From a virus, in IMG/VR virus record IMGVR_UViG_3300031715_000027, positions 1 through 21,821 of that record: DNA of 21,821 bases. The stretch is one strand, 5' to 3'. Position 1 is the first letter of the stretch; each line of letters starts with the position of its first letter. This document shows positions 1,976-21,821 of this stretch, in pieces. Below the pieces are notes generated by a model. That model made no database searches and had not been told where the DNA came from. It worked only from the letters and a program-made list of their open reading frames with translations. The position numbers and the translations under genes were made by a program.

Positions 1976-2293
1976 TCAGACAGGCACGGTGATCAGGGTA
2001 ACGGTCGAGGTCTTCAGGCCGGCGGCGGGGATGAAGGTGACCACGAGCAGATAGCTATGGCCCACCTCGAGCGCTGAGCCCTGGACCCTCTGGATTACCG
2101 AGTTGCCGGACACCACGGGCGCGTCCGCCAGGGCGATGGCAGTGCTCGGCAGGTCGGTGAGCGTCGACGTCGGCGTGGAGACCGCCTCGCCCGGCTGGAG
2201 GACCCCCGTCATGTCGATCTGCCAGTCCCAGATCTCGGTGGTCGCCTGGACGACCATCGGCGGGACCGTGGCCAGCTTGCCGTAGTTGGTCAT
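1976..2293 (-). CDS. Small late-operon structural protein (fibre-associated)
   Basis: A 105-residue protein with no signal peptide or membrane segment. It is rich in beta-formers and resembles the short Ig-like proteins that accompany actinophage tail fibres: a W-D-W core near 22-24, GEAVSTPTSTLTDL in the middle and a VTF/VTLI C-terminal strand. It is the last gene of the late operon. Its ATG overlaps the TGA of the repeat-protein gene upstream (ATGA at 2293-2290), and GGAGG lies about 10 nt before the start. Translation is therefore likely coupled to that of the repeat protein. The precise function is unknown; a fibre or virion accessory protein is an inference from position. Confidence 0.7.
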   Translation of the reverse strand: MTNYGKLATVPPMVVQATTEIWDWQIDMTGVLQPGEAVSTPTSTLTDLPSTAIALADAPVVSGNSVIQRVQGSALEVGHSYLLVVTFIPAAGLKTSTVTLITVPV

Positions 2294-3555
2294 GCGGGCT
2301 GTGCCTCCAGAACGGGGCGGGACTGGGCCAGGACGCCGGATGGTCGATCGAGGGCCGCCAGCTGCCCGTCGCGCTGCGCGGCAGAGACCCTGTCTCGAGG
2401 CGAGCCGGCCACAACGGCGGGACGGGACTGGGCCAGGAGAACGAAGGTGGGAACGCTGGCTATCGGGACGAAGACATTCGCCGCGTCGCTCAGGATCAGC
2501 GAGTCGGCACCGTGACCCGGCTGTGCACCGGTGCGCGCCGAGTCTCCCAGTATCAGGGTGTCCCTCAACGCTGCCTGTCTGAAGGCGGCCGTGGCGCTGT
2601 CGGTGAGAACGAGAGCGTTAGCGCTGCTCGAAGGCTGGCGGGTCACCTTCGCGGTGTCGACGATCGAAATGGCGTCCATCGTGTGTGCCGGTTGCGTGCT
2701 GGACCGAACGGTGTCGGCAAGTGTGACGGGATCCGTCGTGTGCCCCGGCTGGGCTGTGAGCCGAGCCGAGTCGGCGAGAGTGAGGGCGTCGACACTGCGG
2801 GCTGGCTGGCTCCCAAGTCGAGCGGCGTCGGCGAGCTCCAGCAGATCCATCGCGCGGGCCAGTTGCGCCGCGGTCCGGGCGCTGTCCGTCAGGGTCACTG
2901 CATCGGTAGCCTGTGCGGGCTGCAGGGCGACTCTGGCGGTATCCGTAAGGGTTGCGCTGTCCGTGGAATGGGCTGGCTGGGCCGTCGGACGCGCCGAGTC
3001 GGCGACAACGACGAAGTCGGTCGCACGGGCACCCTGCACTGTGGGACGGCCTGAGTCGGTTAGTACGAGAGCGTCCGTGGCGTGGGCCGGTTGGGTCGTC
3101 AAGCGGGCCGTGTCAGTGAGGACGAGGCTGTCGGTGCTCCGGGCCGGTTGCGATGTCAGCCTGGCAGTGTCGGCCACCAAGAGGCTGTCGGTAGCGTCCG
3201 CGGCTTGAGCGGTGGCGCGGGCGCTGTCGGAGATGACCAGGCTGCTCGTGCCGTGCCCCGGCTGGGCTGTGAGCCGAACCGAGTCGGACACGATGAGCGT
3301 GTCGGTGCAGCGGGCTGGTTGAGCCGTCAGGCGCGCCGAGTCGGTAAGAACCAGGGCGTCGGTGGCACGGGCGCCCTGCATCTTGACCCGAACCGTGTCG
3401 GACACAACCAGGCTGTCGGTGCTGTGAACCGGTTGAGCGGCGGCGCGGGCGCTGTCGGAGATGACCAGGGCATCGGTGACCGGGAAGACGTACGCCTCGT
3501 GCAGGTGCGCCGATACATTCGTCGGCGGAGCCGGGACGAACCGCCAGCCGGGCAT
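2290..3555 (-). CDS. Tandem-repeat protein, probable tail fibre shaft
   Basis: A 421-residue protein built mainly of 18 consecutive repeats of exactly 19 residues (residues 27-368). The consensus is close to TDsLvltDsARltAQPArs, with the two Asp, the Ala-Arg pair and Gln-Pro best kept. The last repeats are more worn. A short N-terminal segment (1-26) and a C-terminal tail with two LAQSRP motifs flank the array. No signal peptide or membrane helix is seen. Regular short hydrophobic/Asp repeats suggest a rod or beta-structured fibre, but I know of no named family. It starts 1 nt after the stop of the preceding lectin-like gene, with GGAG about 9 nt ahead, and overlaps the last gene of the operon. 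The cluster position supports a fibre role. Confidence 0.75.
   Translation of the reverse strand: MPGWRFVPAPPTNVSAHLHEAYVFPVTDALVISDSARAAAQPVHSTDSLVVSDTVRVKMQGARATDALVLTDSARLTAQPARCTDTLIVSDSVRLTAQPGHGTSSLVISDSARATAQAADATDSLLVADTARLTSQPARSTDSLVLTDTARLTTQPAHATDALVLTDSGRPTVQGARATDFVVVADSARPTAQPAHSTDSATLTDTARVALQPAQATDAVTLTDSARTAAQLARAMDLLELADAARLGSQPARSVDALTLADSARLTAQPGHTTDPVTLADTVRSSTQPAHTMDAISIVDTAKVTRQPSSSANALVLTDSATAAFRQAALRDTLILGDSARTGAQPGHGADSLILSDAANVFVPIASVPTFVLLAQSRPAVVAGSPRDRVSAAQRDGQLAALDRPSGVLAQSRPVLEAQPA
2452..3477 (-). repeat. 18 x 57-bp in-frame tandem repeat array
   Basis: Coding repeats of 57 bp without any indel between units, diverged at the nucleotide level but kept at the amino-acid level. 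This shows selection on the unit length of 19 residues, and makes recombination-based change in repeat number possible. Confidence 0.85.
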
Positions 3556-6498: not shown

Positions 6499-7056
6499 TT
6501 ATTCGCCGTGAATCAGGCGGTCGAGGATGAACATGTGGTTGATCTCCCAGTCGGGATCCCCGTGGATCCGCTGGACGAGTCGGATGGCCTTCGCGACCGT
6601 GTCCTCGCTGTGCGCGAACCCGACGTCGCCCGGCTCGGCACCGGCCAGATCGATCTCCTTCGCGCCCGAGGCCTCGAGGGCTCGCTTGGACTCGGCCGGG
6701 TCCACGGCATAGATATCAGGCCAGTCCCAGAGCCAGCCGCCGTAGCGAAGAGCCTCCGAGCCGAGCGCCGAGCAGATCCACGTGCCGGGCCTTCGGAATG
6801 GGACGTGGAACCAGGCGGGCGTGAGCTCGTCGACGCAGACCGAGACGATCGTGAGATACCCGTATTTGTTCCCCACCCGGCTCCTGGCGAAGGCAAGTGT
6901 CCGGTTCGGGTCCACCTGGGAAGGCGGCCGCAGGATCGTGAGCTGGCCTCCCGGGGCCACTCGATCGAGGGTGCGCGGCTCGTAGCCGGTGCCGTCAGGC
7001 CTGGTGCCGGTAACCCCGTGGGCCTCGGCCTGGATGACGGTCCACAGCGGGCTCAC
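6499..7056 (-). CDS. NlpC/P60-like (YiiX-type) protein in permuted order
   Basis: A 185-residue protein starting with GTG at 7056, which overlaps the TGA of the DUF1003 gene and follows AGGGAGG. Residues 52-107 match the Cys half of YiiX-type NlpC/P60 enzymes: AFARSRVGNKYGYLTIVS and WICSALGSEALRYGG, with presumed nucleophile C95. Residues 141-178 match the part that normally comes first in that family: PGDVGF, AKAIRLVQRIHG and NHMFIL, with presumed catalytic H174. The start (SPLWTVIQAEAHG) reads like the natural continuation of the C-terminal end. It is probably a peptidoglycan or lipid-linked amidase or protease. With the lysin two genes upstream of the DUF1003 gene, a cell-wall role is likely. 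Activity is not certain. Confidence 0.7.
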   Translation of the reverse strand: MSPLWTVIQAEAHGVTGTRPDGTGYEPRTLDRVAPGGQLTILRPPSQVDPNRTLAFARSRVGNKYGYLTIVSVCVDELTPAWFHVPFRRPGTWICSALGSEALRYGGWLWDWPDIYAVDPAESKRALEASGAKEIDLAGAEPGDVGFAHSEDTVAKAIRLVQRIHGDPDWEINHMFILDRLIHGE

Positions 7057-7490
7057 GGACCTCCCTCTGGCGAGATGCAGACCCTCGAGTGCACCTCGGC
7101 GGTGAGTGCCTCCACGGCTTTCGTCAGCACTGTGTTCTGCCTCAGGAGCTCGCGGGTGTCCTCGCTCACCTCGAGGTGGTGAAGCGCCTGCTCGGCTGCG
7201 ACCTGGTCGGCCCGCTTTGCAGCGATGAGGAGGATCGCCGCCTGTAGCCCCGCCATCGTCGACAGCAGCAGGTTCAAAAGGATGTAAGGGTAGGGGTCGA
7301 AGGCGCGGTGGTGCAGGACGCGCGTGATGAGCTCGGTGTTGACGATCGCCCAGAGCACCATCGCGACCAGGAAGCTGATAACGAAGGGCCAGCTCCCCAT
7401 CGAGTTGCGCATGTAGTCCGCCCACCGCTCCCCTCGGGTGAGCTGTGAACCGGTGCGCACCGCCGGATGGCGATGCCAGGGGGAGCTCAC
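7053..7490 (-). CDS. DUF1003 membrane protein
   Basis: A 145-residue integral membrane protein. The DUF1003 pattern is clear: RGERWADYMRNSMGSWPF leads into the first TM helix (about 34-54), the short loop ends with FDPYPYILLNLLLS, and the second TM helix (about 68-90) is followed by AAKRADQVAAEQ and a charged, probably coiled-coil C-terminal region. GTG at 7490 overlaps the TGA of the upstream gene (GTGA) and has little Shine-Dalgarno sequence, so it depends on coupling. The family's biochemical function is unknown. Its place among lysin, holin-like and NlpC-like genes suggests a role in membrane or envelope changes at lysis, or protection of the membrane (inference). Confidence 0.85.
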   Translation of the reverse strand: MSSPWHRHPAVRTGSQLTRGERWADYMRNSMGSWPFVISFLVAMVLWAIVNTELITRVLHHRAFDPYPYILLNLLLSTMAGLQAAILLIAAKRADQVAAEQALHHLEVSEDTRELLRQNTVLTKAVEALTAEVHSRVCISPEGGP

Positions 7491-8092
7491 CCTGTGGTCG
7501 CCGCCGGTGCTGGCTGTGTAGGTCCGGTATAGGGCGTCCACTCGCCGCCCACCGGCGCGGGGCCCTGGCCGTTCCAGGTGAACAGTGGAGCGCTGGCCGG
7601 AGTCACCACATCCGCCTTGGGCCACACGGTCAGATCGACGGTCGTGGGATCGCCGGCGAAGGCGAACAGCACCTCGGGCGCCGGAGCCGACGGGGGCACG
7701 GCGGAAGGGTCAGGGAGGGCTTCCACGGGAGCAGCCGGGGTCGGGGTCGCCGTGACGGGAGCGGACTCGGGAACGGCTGCCGCAGCCTCGGCGGGTGGAG
7801 GCGCCTCGGCTGGCGCCTTCGGCGCCGGCACGTCGTCCACCGGTGCCGCTGAAGCCGGTGCAGGCTGGTTGCGGGCGATGGCCGCGTGGGCCCAGAAGGC
7901 GACCTCCTCGAGCTTCGTGAGCACGAGCGAGGCCTCGCGGCCCTGCGGGAGCGCTTCGACCAACTGGATAGCCGGGCCCTCGAGCAGTTGGCGGACCTTG
8001 CCGTGCATAGCGGCCACGGCATCGGAGGAAGGCGGCCAACGGAACCGCTTCGCGAGGTCGTCGAGGATCTCGGTCGGAAGGTCTGAACCCAT
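7487..8092 (-). CDS. Acb2/Tad1-like cyclic-nucleotide sponge from internal start
   Basis: Alternative 201-residue product in the same frame, starting at ATG 8092. Upstream lies GAAAAGGAGACA followed by 3 nt and the ATG. The same 12 bases with the same spacing precede the major capsid gene, so this is very likely a real start. The protein begins MGSDLPTEILDDLAKRF, carries the Acb2/Tad1-like hairpin at about residues 9-76, then the Pro/Ala-rich linker and tail. Known Acb2 proteins are soluble multimers that sequester CBASS signals; this form lacks the TM helix and would act in the cytoplasm. The Tyr expected in the family's RFTYHPP-like segment (from memory) is Trp here (RFRWPP). Which signals it binds cannot be told from sequence. 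Confidence 0.75.
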   Translation of the reverse strand: MGSDLPTEILDDLAKRFRWPPSSDAVAAMHGKVRQLLEGPAIQLVEALPQGREASLVLTKLEEVAFWAHAAIARNQPAPASAAPVDDVPAPKAPAEAPPPAEAAAAVPESAPVTATPTPAAPVEALPDPSAVPPSAPAPEVLFAFAGDPTTVDLTVWPKADVVTPASAPLFTWNGQGPAPVGGEWTPYTGPTQPAPAATTG

Positions 8093-8437
8093 GGATGTCT
8101 CCTTTTCGACGGTGCCCGACGAGGAGTCGGACTTGATGGACGGTCCTGCAGAGCTGAGGAGAACGTCGAGCTTTCGATGCAGCTCGGCGTTCGATGATTC
8201 GATGTGGGATTTGAGCTCGGCGGTAATGGCGGCGTTTTTGGCGAGGTGCTTGTGAATCCAGGCGTCGAAGCGCTTTCGAACCCGAGGCCACAGTAGGTAG
8301 CTGGCGAAGGCCGCGATGCCGCCGCAGATGATCCAGGCCGAGAAGTTGGGACCCCAATTGAAGGGCTGCCAGATCGCTGCGAACCAGTGCCGCAGCAGAT
8401 CGAGGTAGTGGACGAAGAGGTGGTTGGGACCGGTCAC
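7487..8437 (-). CDS. Membrane-anchored Acb2/Tad1-family domain protein
   Basis: Full-length product of 316 aa from GTG at 8437, preceded by AGGAG at 7-nt spacing. Residues about 32-50 form one TM helix (FSAWIICGGIAAFASYLLW), followed by a basic then coiled-coil segment (about 53-100). Residues about 124-191 match the Acb2/Tad1 hairpin family: RFRWPP near the start and GREASLVLTKLEEV + FWAHAAIARN at 166-190. Acb2 proteins bind cyclic di- and trinucleotides and block CBASS immunity. A Pro/Ala-rich linker (192-254) and a short C-terminal segment follow. There is no stop codon between the membrane part and the sponge domain. The N-terminal part alone resembles small one-TM proteins of actinophage lysis cassettes. 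The fusion may be genuine or a lost stop codon between two genes; an internal start is listed separately. Confidence 0.8.
   Translation of the reverse strand: MTGPNHLFVHYLDLLRHWFAAIWQPFNWGPNFSAWIICGGIAAFASYLLWPRVRKRFDAWIHKHLAKNAAITAELKSHIESSNAELHRKLDVLLSSAGPSIKSDSSSGTVEKETSMGSDLPTEILDDLAKRFRWPPSSDAVAAMHGKVRQLLEGPAIQLVEALPQGREASLVLTKLEEVAFWAHAAIARNQPAPASAAPVDDVPAPKAPAEAPPPAEAAAAVPESAPVTATPTPAAPVEALPDPSAVPPSAPAPEVLFAFAGDPTTVDLTVWPKADVVTPASAPLFTWNGQGPAPVGGEWTPYTGPTQPAPAATTG
8096..8107 (-). promoter_or_regulatory. Strong internal ribosome-binding site (Acb2-like start)
   Basis: GAAAAGGAGACA, 3 nt before ATG 8092, inside the longer reading frame. It is identical in sequence and spacing to 21805-21816 in front of the major capsid gene. 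Confidence 0.8.
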
Positions 8438-8459
8438 GTTTGCTCTCCTGCTCGACGGC

Positions 8460-8828
8460 TCAAACCTGGTCCGAGGCCCTCCGGCGCTGGTAGGGCTTGA
8501 GCACCTCCTCGGGCACACCCAAGTGGGTGGCCACGTCGATGATCAGGTCGCGCGAGGTGGCGATCCGCTCGATCGTCTCTATCCGGCCGGCCTGGGAGTC
8601 GAGGAGGTCCTGTTGGTGGCTGTTCTGCTCCTGGAGTCGCTTGACCTGTGCCTTCAGGACCTCGATCTCGACCGAGGCTGCTGAGAGAGCCTGGTCCTGG
8701 GCGGTAGCGACCGTGAGCTTCCTCGTCCCCGCGATGGTGACGATGCTGGCGGTCAACAGGCTCAGGACGCCGAAGACGCCGAGAATGATCCCGCCAGCGG
8801 ATCCCCACACAACGGTCGCGGTCGTCAT
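8460..8828 (-). CDS. One-TM coiled-coil membrane protein (holin/spanin-like)
   Basis: A 122-residue protein. A Gly-rich N-terminal TM helix (about 8-34) is followed by a long coiled coil (about 42-88, SVEIEVLKAQVKRLQEQNSH) and a short helix ending VPEEVLKPYQRRRASDQV. The ATG overlaps the TGA of the previous gene (ATGA at 8828-8825). Next to a lysin-like gene and other small membrane proteins, it is a candidate holin accessory or spanin-like component. The sequence has no lipobox and no decisive motif, so this is only a positional inference. Confidence 0.7.
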   Translation of the reverse strand: MTTATVVWGSAGGIILGVFGVLSLLTASIVTIAGTRKLTVATAQDQALSAASVEIEVLKAQVKRLQEQNSHQQDLLDSQAGRIETIERIATSRDLIIDVATHLGVPEEVLKPYQRRRASDQV

Positions 8829-9139
8829 CTACACATGACGTGGATCACGTAGTCGGCCCGGTTGCGATTACCCATGACCACCAAGTTGATGTCATGGAGG
8901 ACGTCGTTCATTGCCCGCACCTGACATTTCTCGCGCCGTGTCGACACCTGTGTGTTGTGCCTCTGGCCTCCCTCGATGTTCCCGACGGCGATCGAGACGT
9001 AGACCAGTGCGCCGATCGTGATCGCGAGAGTGGCTGTGAGGGCGATCGACACCCGCCGCCACAGCTGGGAGTTGAACCTTTCGACAGCATCGGTCGCGGA
9101 CTTCGTATCCGCGATGAGGCCGGTCGCGGTATCGCTCAC
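8825..9139 (-). CDS. Small one-TM membrane protein of the lysis region
   Basis: A 104-residue protein with a polar N-terminal helix (about 1-28), one TM helix (about 30-53, ALTATLAITIGALVYVSIAV) and a polar C-terminal domain with two Cys (REKCQ and the penultimate residue). It starts 1 nt after the stop of the lysin-like gene and overlaps the next gene. Similar small TM proteins are common next to endolysin genes in actinophages. Holin or lysis-regulator function is possible but unproven. Confidence 0.7.
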   Translation of the reverse strand: MSDTATGLIADTKSATDAVERFNSQLWRRVSIALTATLAITIGALVYVSIAVGNIEGGQRHNTQVSTRREKCQVRAMNDVLHDINLVVMGNRNRADYVIHVMCR

Positions 9140-9950: not shown

Positions 9951-11123
9951 CTAGATGGCGAACCGCATCAGGCCGTAGGCCCCCGAGGCGATCCACAGGT
10001 TGCCGTCGGGCCCATTGCATATCCCGTCGCTCGGAACGAGCTGCACAGGGAAGGGTGTGGCGGCCATGCCAGGGTCGGAGAAGCGCATCAGGTTGAACGG
10101 GCCGGTCGGGTCGCGCTGTGTCGCCCACAGGTTGCCGTCGGACCCGAGCGCGAGACCGCCGAGGGCCACGGACGAGGCGATGACGCTGATGGAGCCGGCC
10201 GTGGTGACCTTCGCGAAGTAACCGGTTGTCCCCCCGTCGAACACGGCCACCCACAGATACGTCCCGTCGCTCACGATCGACTGCCAGGTCGTGTTGCCGC
10301 GGTTGCCGACGATGCCGGACCAGCCGTTGTAAAGCGTCTGCACGCCAGCCGTGGTGACCGCCAAGATGGGCGTAGGCCCCGAGTTGGAGGTCACCCACAG
10401 CCTGCCGTCGGGCCCTGAGCAGACACTGCCCGGCTGGTAGTTGGCCCCGCCGGCGAGCCCGTACTCCGTGATGGTCAGGGTGGAGAGGTTCATCTGGGCG
10501 AGCTTCGGGTAGCCCGAGTAGACCTCGGTGAACCAGACATTGCTGTCCGGGCCCACGCAGATCCCGTAGGGGTAGGAGTTGCCGGAACCACCCGGACAGG
10601 CGTACTCGGTCATCACCCCGGCGGTCGTGGTTCGCACGATCCGGTACTCGTTCTGCTCGCACCACCAGAGGTTCCCGTCGGGGGCCGCCACGATGCCGCC
10701 CCCGCTGCCGGCGACGGCGCCAGAGCGCGGCGCGGCGTAGGAGGCCAGCACCGCGCCCGCTGTGCTGTATTTCACGACCGCATTGGCACCCGCGTCGAGT
10801 GTCCAGAGGTTCCCGTCGGGCCCCGAGCAGACCGAGATGATGTTGGAGGTCCCCGGTGTCGGGGGCTGGAAGGCGTAGCCTCCCCCGTTGCTCGGTGGCG
10901 CGCCCGGCAGCCCATGGTCGTGATCGCCCCGGGCGAAATGCGCCGTGTCCATCCCCACGTGTGCTGCTGCGCCGAAGGCATCTGGACCTGTGACCGTGGT
11001 CGCCGGCGCTGGCCCAGCTGTGGCCGGTTGGGCCGCGATCCAGTTCTCGATGCGCTTGAGTCGCTCCTGCGCGGCCTGGAGCGTGGTGAGCAGGTGACGG
11101 CCTGCAGTGGGGACGGTCTTCAC
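9951..11123 (-). CDS. Tail fibre with seven-bladed Vgb-like beta-propeller
   Basis: A 390-residue protein. GTG at 11123 overlaps the TGA of the previous gene (GTGA), with no clear Shine-Dalgarno sequence. A short coiled coil (about 9-30) precedes a fibre collar motif, HFARGDHDHGLP (about 62-73), typical of phage tail fibres. Seven repeats of the form GPDGNLW then follow, as in virginiamycin B lyase-like and SMP-30-like propellers: GPDGNLWTLD, APDGNLWWCE, GPDSNVWFTE, GPDGRLWVTS, DGTYLWVAVF, GSDGNLWATQ and GPDGNLWIAS. The propeller occupies about 95-390. A receptor-binding tail tip protein is the best reading. Lyase activity is not expected, since the tail-fibre collar sets the context. Confidence 0.85.
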   Translation of the reverse strand: MKTVPTAGRHLLTTLQAAQERLKRIENWIAAQPATAGPAPATTVTGPDAFGAAAHVGMDTAHFARGDHDHGLPGAPPSNGGGYAFQPPTPGTSNIISVCSGPDGNLWTLDAGANAVVKYSTAGAVLASYAAPRSGAVAGSGGGIVAAPDGNLWWCEQNEYRIVRTTTAGVMTEYACPGGSGNSYPYGICVGPDSNVWFTEVYSGYPKLAQMNLSTLTITEYGLAGGANYQPGSVCSGPDGRLWVTSNSGPTPILAVTTAGVQTLYNGWSGIVGNRGNTTWQSIVSDGTYLWVAVFDGGTTGYFAKVTTAGSISVIASSVALGGLALGSDGNLWATQRDPTGPFNLMRFSDPGMAATPFPVQLVPSDGICNGPDGNLWIASGAYGLMRFAI

Positions 11124-12283
11124 AACGGAGGCAGGTAGGGAACGGAGGCCACTGGCGGCACGTTCAGCGTGATCGCGGTCGTAGCGACTCCTTCGTCGGG
11201 AACCGTCGTGTCCAGGCGCTGGACTCTCCAGACGATGTCCCAGCCGCCCGGAAAGCACAGGTCTCCCGCGGGCAGGTGGACCCGCAGGTCGTCGCCCGGG
11301 CTCAGCACGTCCGGGCCCATGAGCGCGGCATTCGTGGTGAGCACAGGGGCCACCACCGGGTAGCCCGCCGCTGCCAGGTAGGACTGCAGGAGCTGGATGA
11401 GGAAGTAGGGGCTCGTGTTGCCGGCGAGCCCGGCCTGGCTGACGACCTGCTCGAGCAGTGGCCAGGGCCCTCCTGAGGCTACGAAGCCACCCTCGGCCGA
11501 CTGGCCCCCGAGGGCGAGCATGTACTCGAAGTTCCCCATCTGTGTCGCGTCCGCGGGGTACTCGAAGTCGACACAGACGTCACCGCCGACGTCGACCGTC
11601 TGGTACCAACCGCCCGAGCCGTAGATGTTGCCGGTGCGTGGATATTCGAAGTTGGCGCTCGCCGTGAGGGCATTGCCTATGCCGTAGGCCGGCTTCACCC
11701 GGTAGTCGAAGCCGCCCGCTTCGTACCCCTGCTGCGCGAGCGTCTGGACGATCGAATCGACGGTCTGCTGCTCGGTCTGTGGATAGCTGGCATTGACCCA
11801 GTAGGCCGAGGGACTCGGTGGCGACGCGTTAGCCACGATCGGCGGCGAGTAGATGTTGAACGCGGGATAGTTGACCTGCAGGGCGTCGTGGGTCACCTGG
11901 TAAGCGATCGCCTGCGGGTCCGTCAGCGTCGTGGCCCAGGTGGTCGTGTAGTCCGCTGCTTGAACCCGGGCCGCGAAGTAGCTCCAGAACTCCGAACCAC
12001 CGATGGCGACGGAGCGAGAGGACCGGGTGTAGTCCTTCGTCCAGACGATGCCGCCCCATGCGATCGCCCCGTCGAGGTCGACGACGAGCGCCGTACGCGC
12101 GGGGATGATGTAGGGACTGATCCCCGCGTTGGCCGGCTCCGAGAGGTCGATCGTCCCCTGGAACTGGCCAGCGGCGTTGAGCTCCGAGGAGAACGACACT
12201 CCGGTCATCCACGGCACGTCGCCGATGTAGGCGAAGTCCGCCAGCCGGTAGAGCCGGTAGCGGAGGCTGGCCGCGAGGCTCAT
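11120..12283 (-). CDS. Minor tail protein, tail-hub / Gp37-like
   Basis: A 387-residue protein whose ATG (12283) overlaps the TGA of the distal tail gene (ATGA). The N-terminal part, with SFSSELNAAGQFQGTIDL followed by a GAIAWGGIVW strand, resembles the Gp37-like minor tail proteins of siphoviruses, related to the baseplate hub. A long mixed region with many Tyr and Trp follows, and the C-terminal third has DDLRVHLPAGDLCFPGG and WRVQRLDTTVPDEGV. It sits directly after the tape measure and distal tail genes, where the tail-associated hub is expected. Role: completing the tail tip and linking to the propeller fibre encoded next. Confidence 0.75.
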   Translation of the reverse strand: MSLAASLRYRLYRLADFAYIGDVPWMTGVSFSSELNAAGQFQGTIDLSEPANAGISPYIIPARTALVVDLDGAIAWGGIVWTKDYTRSSRSVAIGGSEFWSYFAARVQAADYTTTWATTLTDPQAIAYQVTHDALQVNYPAFNIYSPPIVANASPPSPSAYWVNASYPQTEQQTVDSIVQTLAQQGYEAGGFDYRVKPAYGIGNALTASANFEYPRTGNIYGSGGWYQTVDVGGDVCVDFEYPADATQMGNFEYMLALGGQSAEGGFVASGGPWPLLEQVVSQAGLAGNTSPYFLIQLLQSYLAAAGYPVVAPVLTTNAALMGPDVLSPGDDLRVHLPAGDLCFPGGWDIVWRVQRLDTTVPDEGVATTAITLNVPPVASVPYLPPL

Positions 12284-13093: not shown

Positions 13094-15295
13094 TCAGATC
13101 CTCATCGCCCAACCGACCTCGCTCGCGATCTCGCTCGGGTTGGCGTTGGTCTGCACGTGGACATTGATCTCTTGCTTCAGGGCCTGGGTGGCCTTCTGCT
13201 CCTCAGCCGTGAATTGCTTCGTCGCCGCAGCCATCTCGGAGACGGTCTGCCTCAGGAGGCTGAGCGATACGGCTGTGTCCTTCACGCTGACGACGAGCAG
13301 CGCCTGGGCCCGCTGGTCCGCGAGGTTCGAGGACGTCGCAGAGGAACCCGAGCTCGCGCTATTGGGTGACGTCGCCGTTGCCTGGGAGACCCGCTTAACC
13401 GCGCTCTGCATGGCACTGTGGGCTTTGTCTGAGCGGTCCGAGATCCCCTTGGCGAGGCCGTCCATGAGATTGCCGCCGACGTCGGCCATCACGCGGCTCG
13501 GGGAGAAAATGCCGAAGAAGCTCGTGATCCCGTGCAGGATCGACTTGCCGATGCTCTTCATGATCGAGCCGATCTTGCCGATGCCCTTCTCCATCCCGTG
13601 GAGGAGCCCCTCGAGGATCTTCTCGCCGGCGTCGACGAGCATTTGGGCGACGTCGCCCAGGGCGTGCAGGATCCTGCCCGGGATGGAGGTGAAGAAGGAC
13701 TCGATCGTGTGCCAGTGCTTGATCACCTGCGGGAGGATGAGCGACATCCCGAGAGTGAATGGGGCGAGCACGACCTCCAGGACCAGGGGCCCCCACTTCT
13801 TCACGAAGCCCCAGAAGTCATCGAAGACACGCTGTACCTTGTGCCATACGGTCTTCGCGACCGACTCGACCTGCTTCCAGTGGGTGACGAGGAGCAGCCC
13901 GATGGCGACGATGGCCATGATCGCAATGCCGATCGGCCCGAAGGCCATCGACGAGGCGGCCCCGGTCGCCTCCGAGCTCGCAGCGAACTCTGCCTCTGCT
14001 GCCTCGACCTCGCCGAAGCTGAGCTGTATCGCGTCGCCGGCCTCGGTCTGGGCGGCTGCCGCCGCTGACGCGGCCTCGCTCGAGGCTGCGAAATTGGGGA
14101 TCGTGTCGAGGAGCTTCGAGCCCAGTTTGCCGACAGCCCCCACGGCCTTCGAGATCGAGCCGACGAACTTGACCGTCATATTCACGGCGAATGCGGCGAC
14201 CGCGATGGCGAGCACGCCGCCGATCACGCCGGCGAGGACCTTGGCGACGTCCTTGTGCTTCTCGAGCCAGCCGATGGACTTGGAGACCGTCGAGATGGCC
14301 ATCTGGATCTTCGGCGTGAGGAACTCGCCGAACTGCGTGCCGAGGTTGTGGACCTCGGCCCGGGCGGTCTGCATCTCGCCTGGGAGGGTCTTGCCGTAGG
14401 CGACAGCCGCCCCTTCGGTCTTCTTCTTGAGCTCCGCGAGGATGTCCCCGCTCGCCTGCTGGTCTCGCCTCAGGTGGTCGCTCGCGACCGACACCGAGTT
14501 CTGGGCGGTGGCGAGCGCCTGTTGGGCCGCGACGCCTTTCAGGGACCCGTCGGCGATCTTCTGCTGGGTTTGTTCGAGGTGGAGCTGGGCCGTCGCGAGC
14601 GCCTGGCTCGCGGTGTGCATCGAGGACAACTTGGCGGAGCCGATGTCGAGGTTCAGGCCGAGGCTCGTGAGGGCCCGGGTGCTGCCGGCAAAGGTCTTCG
14701 CGAGGATCCCCGAGGCTTCCGCCAGCGAGATGTGCTTCATGCGCGCCAGGTCGGCCGCGAGCCCGAGATCGGCGATCGCCTTCTTCGGCGACCCCGTCGC
14801 CGTCGTGAGCGTGGTTAGCGCTGTGGCCGTGTCGGTCGAGTTGAACCCGAGCTTCGCCATCGAAGCGAAGCTGGCGTCGATCTGGGGCTTCAGTGACCGC
14901 AGGTTCCCGCCGTTGTTCTTGATGGCGGTGTCCATCGAGGCGGCCGCCGTGTCGTAGGCGTCGGCCATCTTGAGGGCCTCTGAGCCCACCGCGACCGTCC
15001 CCGCAGCGAGGCCGAGGAGCGCGGTGCCGCCGAAGCTCGAGAGCCGCTGGAAGGCGCTCCGTCCCTTGCCCTCGGTCTCATCGAACTTGGAGCCGACAGA
15101 GGTGAGGGCCCCGGCGAAGGGGATGCCGAGGTTCGAGGCGGTGTTGCCGAGGTTCGTGAAGAGGCCGCCGAGGCGGGAGGTGTTCTTCTCGATCTTGCCG
15201 GTCGCGTCTTCGGAGACGAGGGCCGAGTCGTTGAAGGACTTTACGAGGCTCTGGTTGTCACCGAGGAGGATGGCACGAAGGGTGCGCGATGCCAC
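13094..15295 (-). CDS. Tape measure protein
   Basis: Determines tail length and helps genome delivery. The product is 733 aa from GTG at 15295, which has GGAGG at 8-nt spacing. It is largely helical: N-terminal region (1-120), coiled coils (about 225-295), a hydrophobic segment near 353-377, and a second near 451-471 (GIAIMAIVAIGLLLV). Further C-terminal helices rich in Gly/Ile carry ITSFFGIFSPSRVMADVGGN, a motif seen in many tape measure proteins. Its length and its position between chaperone and distal tail genes agree. The protein spans 733 residues, so by the usual rule of about 1.5 Å per residue the tail would be near 110 nm (rough inference). Confidence 0.95.
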   Translation of the reverse strand: MASRTLRAILLGDNQSLVKSFNDSALVSEDATGKIEKNTSRLGGLFTNLGNTASNLGIPFAGALTSVGSKFDETEGKGRSAFQRLSSFGGTALLGLAAGTVAVGSEALKMADAYDTAAASMDTAIKNNGGNLRSLKPQIDASFASMAKLGFNSTDTATALTTLTTATGSPKKAIADLGLAADLARMKHISLAEASGILAKTFAGSTRALTSLGLNLDIGSAKLSSMHTASQALATAQLHLEQTQQKIADGSLKGVAAQQALATAQNSVSVASDHLRRDQQASGDILAELKKKTEGAAVAYGKTLPGEMQTARAEVHNLGTQFGEFLTPKIQMAISTVSKSIGWLEKHKDVAKVLAGVIGGVLAIAVAAFAVNMTVKFVGSISKAVGAVGKLGSKLLDTIPNFAASSEAASAAAAAQTEAGDAIQLSFGEVEAAEAEFAASSEATGAASSMAFGPIGIAIMAIVAIGLLLVTHWKQVESVAKTVWHKVQRVFDDFWGFVKKWGPLVLEVVLAPFTLGMSLILPQVIKHWHTIESFFTSIPGRILHALGDVAQMLVDAGEKILEGLLHGMEKGIGKIGSIMKSIGKSILHGITSFFGIFSPSRVMADVGGNLMDGLAKGISDRSDKAHSAMQSAVKRVSQATATSPNSASSGSSATSSNLADQRAQALLVVSVKDTAVSLSLLRQTVSEMAAATKQFTAEEQKATQALKQEINVHVQTNANPSEIASEVGWAMRI

Positions 15296-15308
15296 TGTCC
15301 AGTCCTCC

Positions 15309-15794
15309 TCACTCGCGGTAAGCAGTGACGGCAACCTCGATCGCGTCGTCGATGCTGCGAAGCGCCATCTCTGCGGCCACAGCGCCCTTCTTGTCCATCG
15401 CCGGGGCGAGGAACGGGTACATGCGCTGTGCCACCCAGGCCTCACGGTCGCCGAAGATCGGATGCCGAAAGGTCCTGCCGCCTCGCTGTCCCCTGTTGCC
15501 GGCCTCGAGTAGTCCTGCCTCCGGGGCCTGAGCGCCGCCGGCGATCACCACGACTGAGGCACCGCGCGTGCGAACCTTGATCGAGGAGGCGATGCGGTCG
15601 GTGCGGTTCTTGCCCGGGATGGCCGCGGCATTGCGGCGCGCCTCCGCGCCCATGAGCTCGCCGGCCGCCCTCAGGTTCCGGCGCAGTGATCTCGAGTTCT
15701 CGGCCGAGGCCTTGCGCAGAGCCTTGGCGAAGTCCCTGAACTCACGCGTGTCGACGGAGATACCGCCCGTCGAGAGGGTCGTGGGCTTCGCCAT
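15309..15794 (-). CDS. HK97 gp10-like tail-component protein
   Basis: A 161-residue protein (ATG 15794, GGGAG 4 nt upstream). Residues about 10-75 form the helical part typical of the HK97 gp10-like family (FRDFAKALRKASAENSRSLR, then GELMGAEARRNAAAIPG). A SSIKVRTRGASVVVIAGG strand and a short GRTFRHPIFG motif follow, and the C-terminal helix is APAMDKKGAVAAEMALRSI. Members usually act at the head-tail joint or in tail completion. Here the gene sits between the tail chaperone and the tape measure rather than upstream of the tail tube gene, which is an uncommon order. Confidence 0.8.
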   Translation of the reverse strand: MAKPTTLSTGGISVDTREFRDFAKALRKASAENSRSLRRNLRAAGELMGAEARRNAAAIPGKNRTDRIASSIKVRTRGASVVVIAGGAQAPEAGLLEAGNRGQRGGRTFRHPIFGDREAWVAQRMYPFLAPAMDKKGAVAAEMALRSIDDAIEVAVTAYRE

Positions 15795-20184: not shown

Positions 20185-21801
20185 TCAGCTGTTGCCTCGG
20201 TACAGGCTCCGGAAGTCCACGGCCGTGCCGCCGTAGATGTGCCGGATCTTGTAGGTGAGCTTGTCCGCCGTGAACACCGACCCCACAGTCGGGTCGTTCT
20301 GCACGAACAGCTCGGGGTCGACCTGGCCGTTGTAGAACCCGAGCTCGATCGTCGGGATCATGTTCGGGTCAGCGACGATGAACCAGGCCGTCTGCGAGGT
20401 GGCTGTCCAGTAATCGACGACGACCGCTGTCATCCCCTGGTGCAGGTTGGGGACGTTCCCAGCCGCAGCTCCGTCCGGAGCGGCCACCGGCAGCACGACC
20501 GAGGACTCGGTGAGCTCGAAAGCGAGCTGCTCGAGGCTCGAGTTCACGACCAGGAGCTTCGGCACGATGGACAGGATGTCCTTCGTGTCCCCGTAGGCCG
20601 TCTGCTGGCGCATCGCGGCGCGGGCAGCCGACAGGTTCCCGTTCGACAACACCGTCGCCGCGGTGTTGTTGTGCCCCGCCACGAAGAGCGCCGTCCCGTC
20701 CGGGGTGTAGATCGGGTTCGTGATGAACCAGTCCCAGACGAAGCGGTAGAGCGTCTGCGCGGCCGCGAGGCCGAGCAGGGTCGGGATCCGCTGCACCGCA
20801 CGGATGTCGTCGTTGGCGATGGTCTCGAGGGTCAGGTCTTCCGTGCCACCCCGCTTGCTGATGGCGTAGGTCGCCTCCTCGTTCCCCGGCGTCGTGAGCG
20901 GCTGGTAGGGAGCGCCCTGGTTCACTCCAGGGAGCGTTCCGTAGCCGCCCAGACGCTCGATGCGCTGCGTACGGAAGTCGACGATCGGCACGATCGAGGA
21001 CACGACGCTTCGCCAGGTCTGGAGGTTCGGCTGCTGGTACATGGCCACCATCCGGCGGGTGATCGAGTCACCGAGGATGAGGTTCCACGTCCCGGACTGC
21101 GCCGACTCCGTGAGGCGCCGGGCCTTGGCCGAGTCGTAGTCACGCGCGCCGATCGACTCGCGCATCACCATCTCGGCGAGCTCGGCGCGACCCATACCGG
21201 CAGGGTTCGTCCCGGTGATGTCGCAGAAGGCGTGGGTGAGCGTGCGATAGCCCTCGAGCTGGCGGTGGGGATCGAAGAGGGCGTCGAGCGCGCCGATCTT
21301 CTTGTCGCGCTCTTCCTTCGTCACCCTCGAGATCTCGGTCGGCGCCCGGCCACCGCCGTCCACGAGCTGCTCACGCTCGAGCTCCCGGCGCATTTCGCCG
21401 TAGACCTGGATGTGAGAGGTCAGCTGCTTCTCGGTGAACCTCTCCGGGAGGCGCTTGGTGATCGACTCGACGAACCGGTCCTCGAGCCCGACGCCGGAGA
21501 CGGCCTCACGGATGAGCACACGTCCCATCATGGAGTCGCGCGCCACGACGGACTCCGTCGCGGCCCCGACGCCGGCAGTCTCGGTCTCGGTCTCACCCGT
21601 CTCTGAGCCGGTTCCGGTCTCGGTCTCTGTGCCCGTTTCCGTCTCGGTTCCACCTGTACCCGTGGGACTGTCCAGAAGCCGGGTCATGTCGGCCTCGTCC
21701 AGGCCGTACTCCTCGAGGACGGACTTGTGCTCTTGGAGCAACTCAGTCCGCTTCTCGGCGGTCGCGCCACGGAGCAGTTCGAGAAGCTCCTTGAGGGTCA
21801 T
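20185..21801 (-). CDS. Major capsid protein with N-terminal scaffold-like region
   Basis: A 538-residue protein that starts with ATG 21801 after GAAAAGGAGACA. Residues 1-43 are helical and charged (LKELLELLRGATAEKRTELL). Residues 47-76 are a Thr/Glu/Gly repeat linker, and 84-160 is another charged helical region (LEDRFVESITKRLPERF), like scaffold parts of capsid precursors. From about 160 onwards the sequence fits an HK97-fold capsid: SGTWNLILGDSITRRMVAMY, FRTQRIERLGGYGTLPG, YRFVWDWFITNPIYTPDG and a closing YKIRHIYGGTAVDFRSLYRG. About 150 N-terminal residues would be cut off by a protease during maturation (inference), and a protease gene is expected beyond the right edge. Confidence 0.88.
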   Translation of the reverse strand: MTLKELLELLRGATAEKRTELLQEHKSVLEEYGLDEADMTRLLDSPTGTGGTETETGTETETGTGSETGETETETAGVGAATESVVARDSMMGRVLIREAVSGVGLEDRFVESITKRLPERFTEKQLTSHIQVYGEMRRELEREQLVDGGGRAPTEISRVTKEERDKKIGALDALFDPHRQLEGYRTLTHAFCDITGTNPAGMGRAELAEMVMRESIGARDYDSAKARRLTESAQSGTWNLILGDSITRRMVAMYQQPNLQTWRSVVSSIVPIVDFRTQRIERLGGYGTLPGVNQGAPYQPLTTPGNEEATYAISKRGGTEDLTLETIANDDIRAVQRIPTLLGLAAAQTLYRFVWDWFITNPIYTPDGTALFVAGHNNTAATVLSNGNLSAARAAMRQQTAYGDTKDILSIVPKLLVVNSSLEQLAFELTESSVVLPVAAPDGAAAGNVPNLHQGMTAVVVDYWTATSQTAWFIVADPNMIPTIELGFYNGQVDPELFVQNDPTVGSVFTADKLTYKIRHIYGGTAVDFRSLYRGNS

Positions 21802-21804
21802 CTC

Positions 21805-21816
21805 TGTCTCCTTTTC
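21805..21816 (-). promoter_or_regulatory. Ribosome-binding site of the capsid gene
   Basis: GAAAAGGAGACA, then 3 nt, then the ATG at 21801. The identical 12-mer with identical spacing stands before the internal Acb2-like start at 8092. Confidence 0.85.
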
Positions 21817-21821
21817 ATCGG

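What the first reader, a model, noticed from the sequence alone, without database searches (positions are those of the whole stretch)
8090..8107. Internal start inside the fusion uses the same 12-nt RBS as the capsid gene
GAAAAGGAGACA plus 3 nt plus ATG appears twice in the window: before the major capsid gene (21805-21816) and inside the long frame before the Acb2-like domain (8096-8107). Such identity at equal spacing is hard to explain by coding needs alone. It implies that a soluble 201-aa sponge is made at a high rate next to the 316-aa membrane form, or that two genes fused by loss of a stop codon.
Basis: seen in the sequence. Interest (0 to 1): 0.75.

Follow-up and report, generated by a model that had tools for sequence, protein, structure and literature searches.

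The report
Internal start in phage sponge fusion
A phage gene that joins a membrane segment to an Acb2-like domain (a family that soaks up bacterial alarm nucleotides) carries a full ribosome-binding site and start codon exactly where free-standing Acb2 genes begin, so it probably makes a membrane-bound and a soluble version; the phage's fused protease-capsid gene uses the same device, which is a known phage habit applied to a new pair of domains.

Summary
The context needs one correction. A 99.99% identical, longer contig shows that the "capsid start" is itself internal: it lies in frame inside an 852-codon protease-capsid gene (22740-20185). Both copies are therefore internal starts inside fusion genes. 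In 50 non-redundant relatives of the protease-capsid gene, Shine-Dalgarno (SD) sites are concentrated at that junction while the encoded residues vary, so an internal start there is well supported. Of 460 internal start codons in this phage, only these two have a 7-nt SD match. The motif is also a common strong phage RBS: 83% of its IMG/VR copies head an ORF, and five of seven copies inside long frames sit at a domain boundary. Identity of the two copies thus needs no common origin. Nearly all of about 123 Acb2 relatives examined begin near the internal Met and are free-standing. Most likely one gene makes a 316-aa membrane form and a 201-aa soluble form. Expression and nucleotide binding are untested, no relative of this fusion was found, and the domain lacks a near-invariant His.

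The parts
8090..8107 (-). Internal ribosome-binding site and ATG: GAAAAGGAGACA TCC ATG (7-nt SD match AAAGGAG, 6 nt before ATG)
7487..8437 (-). Long fusion ORF, GTG start, 316 aa: membrane helix + helical arm + Acb2-like domain + Pro/Ala-rich tail with a C-terminal segment
8445..8449 (-). SD (AGGAG) of the long form, 7 nt before GTG 8437
8288..8344 (-). Predicted single transmembrane helix (residues 32-50), followed by a basic stretch (PRVRKRF) that places the C-terminal part in the cytoplasm by the positive-inside rule (inference)
   Evidence: hydropathy; helix 32-96 in a low-confidence model
7487..8092 (-). Predicted short product, 201 aa, without the membrane part
7868..8074 (-). Acb2-like three-helix domain (PF24729 match at residues 147-189 of the long form)
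   Evidence: Pfam 37.9 bits against cut-off 27; PHROG 1454; AF2 model pLDDT 90; PDB 9ptq Acb2 homolog 43
7490..7852 (-). Pro/Ala-rich tail and C-terminal segment; no relative found
21799..21816 (-). Second copy of the motif: internal start inside the protease-capsid fusion gene (GAAAAGGAGACA GAG ATG)
20185..21821 (-). Part inside the window of the 852-codon protease-capsid ORF (22740-20185 in the sister contig); ATG 21801 gives the 538-aa scaffold-capsid product

Best explanation
The 18 nt at 8090-8107 are a working internal translation start inside a fused gene. Ribosomes starting at GTG 8437 make a 316-aa protein whose single membrane helix holds an Acb2-like domain at the inner face of the membrane. 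Ribosomes starting at ATG 8092 on the same mRNA make a 201-aa soluble Acb2-like protein. The gene probably arose when a small membrane-protein gene and a free-standing Acb2 gene came into one frame and the RBS of the second was kept. The phage uses the same arrangement in its protease-capsid gene, where the internal start would make capsid subunits without the protease. The likely role is sequestering of cyclic-nucleotide alarm signals in the cytosol and at the membrane, where several effectors act. Shown here: the motif, frames, domain identities, SD ranking, position relative to free-standing homologs, and conservation of the internal start signal in the capsid family. Inferred: actual initiation at 8092, membrane insertion, nucleotide binding, and the benefit of two forms.
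For: Of 460 internal in-frame start codons (158 ATG) in 37 called genes, only 21801 and 8092 have a 7-nt contiguous SD match; only one ordinary gene start equals it. The codon choice for EKET at this site has about 1.2% probability under the phage's codon usage (GAA 15% of Glu, ACA 9% of Thr). Predicted accessibility ranks 9th of 107 internal ATGs. 73/73 IMG/VR Acb2 relatives have a start codon between -14 and +10 residues of the internal Met (commonest +8), and 60/73 have an in-frame stop within 60 codons upstream; 47/50 from GTDB genomes likewise have a start near it. The same motif with ATG in IMG/VR heads an ORF of at least 50 aa in 85/102 cases against 27% of random ATGs. Inside long frames it marks domain boundaries: Mu-like protease|scaffold, S49 protease|scaffold, T7-type primase-helicase after the Zn-finger, exonuclease|RecT, and the end of a PD-(D/E)XK nuclease. 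In 50 protease-capsid relatives, SD runs of at least 5 nt precede 34/128 ATGs in the junction zone against 23/370 elsewhere, Fisher p about 7e-9, with ATG and GTG exchanged at the site. The long form has its own SD and GTG 22 nt after the preceding stop.
Against: No expression data. No independent relative of this fusion exists in the collections searched, so conservation of 8092 itself is untested. The Acb2 domain is divergent: the near-invariant His of the F-x-x-H-P motif is absent and the N of FWANAA is H, so ligand binding may be changed or lost. The SD duplex energy including bulges (-9.3 kcal/mol) is not exceptional. The 22 protease-capsid relatives' contigs searched have no recognisable Acb2, though most are fragments.
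Confidence: 0.6

Rival explanations
1. Fossil signal: the gene is a fusion by stop-codon loss and the old RBS of the free-standing Acb2 gene is still readable, but the long membrane form is the only product that matters.
For: Free-standing homologs start at this place; no homolog of the fusion is known, so it may be young.
Against: A 7-nt SD with optimal spacing in an accessible stretch should still initiate. The same phage keeps a like site in the capsid gene, where the family conserves it.
Confidence: 0.15
2. Only the 201-aa soluble form is made; the membrane part upstream is an independent or decaying gene that lost its stop.
For: The internal SD (7 nt) is stronger than that of the long form (5 nt, GTG).
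Against: The upstream part is well-formed coding sequence: GC3 0.80, a hydrophobic helix, its own SD and a start 22 nt after the preceding stop.
Confidence: 0.08
3. The match follows from protein coding: E-K-E-T-x-M is a needed peptide, for example a cleavage or linker motif, and the SD likeness is a by-product.
For: Both sites read EKETxM, and both lie between domains.
Against: In capsid relatives the peptide changes (NKEGTD, STKESD, YEEED, HTQESE, HQRGES) while SD and start codon stay, with Met and Val exchanged as ATG and GTG. Codon choice is unusual for the peptide.
Confidence: 0.04
4. Internal start real, but the domain is no longer a nucleotide sponge; it serves as an oligomerisation module of a late membrane protein in the lysis region.
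For: The gene sits among small membrane-protein genes after the tail genes, whereas Acb2 in the annotated phages examined is a free-standing gene in other neighbourhoods; near-invariant His lost.
Against: The core hairpin motif (P-x-GRE...TKLEE..FWA.AAIAR) is intact and scores above the Pfam cut-off.
Confidence: 0.13

Closest known systems
Anti-CBASS protein Acb2 / Acb2-Tad1 hairpin family (PF24729, PHROG 1454)
   Same: Core motif, three-helix layout and start position. The Acb2 protomer is described as one short N-terminal and two long antiparallel helices that assemble as a hexamer (PMC12043709).
   Different: Fused to a membrane segment and a Pro/Ala-rich tail; lacks the near-invariant His. 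Most free-standing homologs are about 65-110 aa.
Protease-capsid fusion genes of the Gifsy-2 / Stenotrophomonas S1 / Rhodobacter phage kind (PF25209, phrog_133, phrog_4523, phrog_29592)
   Same: The second copy of the motif lies in a member of this family, at the protease/scaffold junction where the family keeps an internal SD and start.
   Different: A head gene, unrelated in sequence to the Acb2 fusion; only the translation arrangement is shared.
Classic in-frame internal starts of phages (lambda C/Nu3, Mu I/Z, T7 gene 4A/4B; from memory)
   Same: One frame, two products, the shorter from an internal RBS at a domain boundary. The exact motif was found at the Mu-like, S49-protease and T7-type junctions of uncultivated phages.
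   Different: Those pairs concern head assembly and replication, not counter-defence.

Membership tests
Acb2/Tad1 hairpin family (PF24729) | Profile match above the curated cut-off | tested here: met
   37.9 bits against 27, E 2.1e-9; 40.6 bits for the domain alone
Acb2/Tad1 hairpin family (PF24729) | Invariant residues of the hairpin (P, R-E, E, A-R at the end) | tested here: met
   A41, P49, R52, E53, E62, A73 and R74 identical in all 50 sequences
Acb2/Tad1 hairpin family (PF24729) | Near-invariant His of the F-x-x-H-P motif (a feature of the alignment made here, not a published criterion) | tested here: not met
   Gap in the window sequence at the His column (FRW-PP); His is present in nearly all GTDB relatives read, with rare exceptions such as L313 and L339
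Acb2/Tad1 hairpin family (PF24729) | Fold matches a solved Acb2 structure | tested here: inconclusive
   Model has the right helix order; T4 Vs.4 with cGAMP (7uq2) appears at Z 5.7 among unrelated helical hairpins; Foldseek has no match below 0.001
Anti-CBASS sponge (functional class) | Binds and sequesters cyclic di- or trinucleotides; rescues phage from CBASS | not testable with these tools
   Needs biochemistry and plaque assays
In-frame internal-start (nested) phage genes | Strong SD at proper spacing before an in-frame start codon at a domain boundary | tested here: met
In-frame internal-start (nested) phage genes | Signal conserved in relatives beyond the coding needs | tested here: inconclusive
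   Met for the capsid copy; untestable for the Acb2 fusion because no relative was found
In-frame internal-start (nested) phage genes | Both products detected | not testable with these tools
   Needs proteomics or ribosome profiling
Protease-capsid fusion (phrog_29592 / phrog_133) | One uninterrupted frame through protease, scaffold region and capsid domain | tested here: met
   851 aa match phrog_29592 over positions 51-887 of 893; capsid PF25209 at 546-848; N-terminal part hits head maturation protease profiles weakly (phrog_3894 E 1e-8, phrog_15531 E 5.5e-4); no Pfam protease hit

The most novel reading that the evidence does not exclude
A phage makes a nucleotide sponge in two forms from one gene, a membrane-tethered one and a free one, by internal initiation. 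The two may form mixed hexamers, so signals are trapped both in the cytosol and next to membrane effectors.
Probability: 0.38. Interest if true: 0.68.

Novelty: new variant of a known kind. Interest (0 to 1): 0.5.

Why it matters
If true, it would be an Acb2-type counter-defence protein with a membrane-anchored form, and an extension of the phage dual-start device from head assembly and replication to immune evasion. No membrane-anchored Acb2 turned up in the papers searched, but most subscription papers are not held. More broadly, the comparison gives a simple sequence rule: an in-frame RBS at a domain boundary, read as EKETxM, marks fused phage genes that probably make two products, of which an annotation by longest frame lists only the long one.

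Tried and rejected
Searching for relatives of the fusion: IMG/VR gave only the same phage, GTDB gave no relative of the full protein, and the phage collection gave no significant hit to the membrane part (best E 6) and none to the C-terminal part. Long open frames upstream of Acb2 in relatives (L067, L069, L077, L060, L085 and others) looked like fusions but read as Arg/Pro-rich out-of-frame translations in GC-rich DNA and were rejected; L080 is a real second fusion, without a strong internal RBS. Fold search of the 81-aa model was uninformative for so simple a hairpin. The full-length model without an alignment is poor (pLDDT 52.6). SD duplex energy with bulges did not separate true sites from noise in this GC-rich genome; contiguous SD match length did. 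Shared descent of the two 12-mers was considered and rejected as unneeded, since the motif is a common strong RBS. NCBIfam was not searched, because the one call failed on coordinates. The held library gave no text on Gifsy-2 internal starts or on membrane-anchored Acb2.

Full report
Observation. GAAAAGGAGACA-N3-ATG is present exactly twice in the window, at 8090-8107 and 21799-21816 on the minus strand. Shuffled sequence gives none, although the core AAAGGAG by itself is no rarer than chance. The long frame starts at GTG 8437 with its own SD (AGGAG) 22 nt after the preceding stop, and ends at 7487: 316 aa. The internal ATG 8092 is in frame and gives 201 aa.

Correction of context. The window is a viral contig cut at 21821. 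A second IMG/VR record (IMGVR_UViG_3300031753_000300, 39,644 b) is the same phage, with one mismatch in the overlap, and extends 18 kb further. There the frame of the 'capsid gene' continues upstream to ATG 22740, 852 codons including the stop. The protein matches PHROG 29592 over nearly its whole length and carries the capsid domain PF25209 at 546-848; the N-terminal part matches head maturation protease profiles weakly. The annotated relatives include protease-capsid fusions such as those of Rhodobacter phages, Stenotrophomonas phage S1 and Gifsy-2. So ATG 21801 is also an internal in-frame start, and the two copies are the same kind of thing.

Is an internal start at the capsid site real? 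Ten fused genes read first all have an SD-like sequence, some weak, before a Met at the protease/scaffold junction, with different residues encoded. In the closest relatives the junction reads NKEGTD^M, STKESD^V, YEEED^V, HTQESE^V, HQRGES^M; L107 keeps the Met with a weak SD. The SD stays and ATG and GTG are exchanged. In 50 non-redundant fused genes, SD runs of at least 5 nt precede 34 of 128 ATGs in the junction zone and 23 of 370 elsewhere, p about 7e-9. The zone was set after viewing the first relatives and the starts are not fully independent, so the p-value is a guide only.

Is the Acb2 site of the same strength? Of 460 internal start codons in 37 called genes of the phage (my own rough gene calls), 21801 and 8092 alone have a 7-nt contiguous SD match, and only one gene's own start equals it. 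Given the amino acids, the phage's codon usage would produce the 12-mer in about 1.2% of trials at each site. Predicted accessibility of the start region ranks 9th of 107 internal ATGs for 8092 and 22nd for 21801.

What the second half is. Residues 147-189 of the long form match PF24729, Acb2/Tad1 hairpin, above the cut-off, and PHROG 1454; the profile finds PDB 9ptq 'Acb2 homolog 43'. The AF2 model from a 50-sequence alignment has one short and two long helices at pLDDT 90, as described for Acb2 (PMC12043709). All seven invariant residues are kept, but the near-invariant His is missing and FWANAA reads FWAHAA.

Where relatives start. In 73 IMG/VR relatives a start codon lies between -14 and +10 residues of the internal Met, most often at +8, and 60 have an in-frame stop within 60 codons upstream. 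In 50 relatives from GTDB genomes 47 have a start near it. They are mostly short free-standing proteins, with one other real fusion seen, L080. The internal ATG therefore sits where the free-standing gene begins. In the annotated phages read, the Acb2 gene is free-standing too.

What the first half is. Residues 1-115 have one hydrophobic segment (32-50) followed by basic residues and a long helix. No family or relative was found. The gene lies in a cluster of small predicted membrane proteins after the tail genes.

Is the 12-nt identity special? Of 102 usable ones, 85 head an ORF of at least 50 aa, against 27% of random ATGs in the same DNA, and 69 of these have fewer than 40 open codons upstream. 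It is thus a common strong phage RBS, and identity between two sites needs no shared origin. Seven sites lie inside long frames. Five of these are at domain boundaries: Mu-like protease|scaffold (L225), S49 protease|scaffold (L228), T7-type primase-helicase after the Zn-finger (L263), exonuclease|RecT (L255), and the end of a PD-(D/E)XK nuclease (L270). In these frames the motif reads EKET-x-M. That lambda C/Nu3, Mu I/Z and T7 4A/4B use internal starts is from memory.

Conclusion. Internal initiation at 8092 is the best reading. The combined claim (two products, a membrane and a soluble form, with a sponge role) is given 0.6 as the leading model; initiation itself is more certain than the sponge role. 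Fossil RBS, soluble form only, and a non-sponge module remain open. The device is known; its use on a membrane/Acb2 pair is new to the collections searched.

Noticed in passing
window 20185-21821 and L093:2062-4614: The 'major capsid gene' is the 3' part of an 852-codon protease-capsid fusion gene that runs off the window; internal SD and start at the junction are conserved in the family.
   Followed up: yes
L225:11397-12254, L228:2-763, L255:304-1785, L263:1665-3395, L270:4091-5455: The same RBS motif occurs in frame at domain boundaries of other fused phage genes (Mu-like protease|scaffold, S49 protease|scaffold, exonuclease|RecT, T7-type primase-helicase, PD-(D/E)XK nuclease|tail), suggesting a searchable signature for dual-product genes.
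   Followed up: partly
L080:2185-3462: Another Acb2 fusion: about 270-aa acidic, Glu/Pro-rich N-terminal protein plus Acb2 domain plus basic tail; no strong internal RBS.
   Followed up: partly
window 9951-11258: Tail-region protein with a strong virginiamycin B lyase-type propeller match (PF24684, 103 bits), probably a receptor-binding or structural propeller.
   Followed up: no
window 2290-3555: Protein made of many copies of a roughly 17-residue repeat (like TDALVLTDSARLTAQPA), fibre-like.
   Followed up: no
window 7053-9139: Cluster of four adjacent small genes with predicted membrane segments (DUF1003 protein, the fusion, a coiled-coil protein weakly like spanins, and a 104-aa protein), possibly the lysis region.
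   Followed up: partly
window 15295: GTG with AGGAGG inside the tape-measure frame 13094-15445 is probably the true tape-measure start, as the frame upstream of it overlaps the gene at 15309-15794.
   Followed up: no
window 11433: Only base that differs between the window and the sister contig over 21.6 kb.
   Followed up: no
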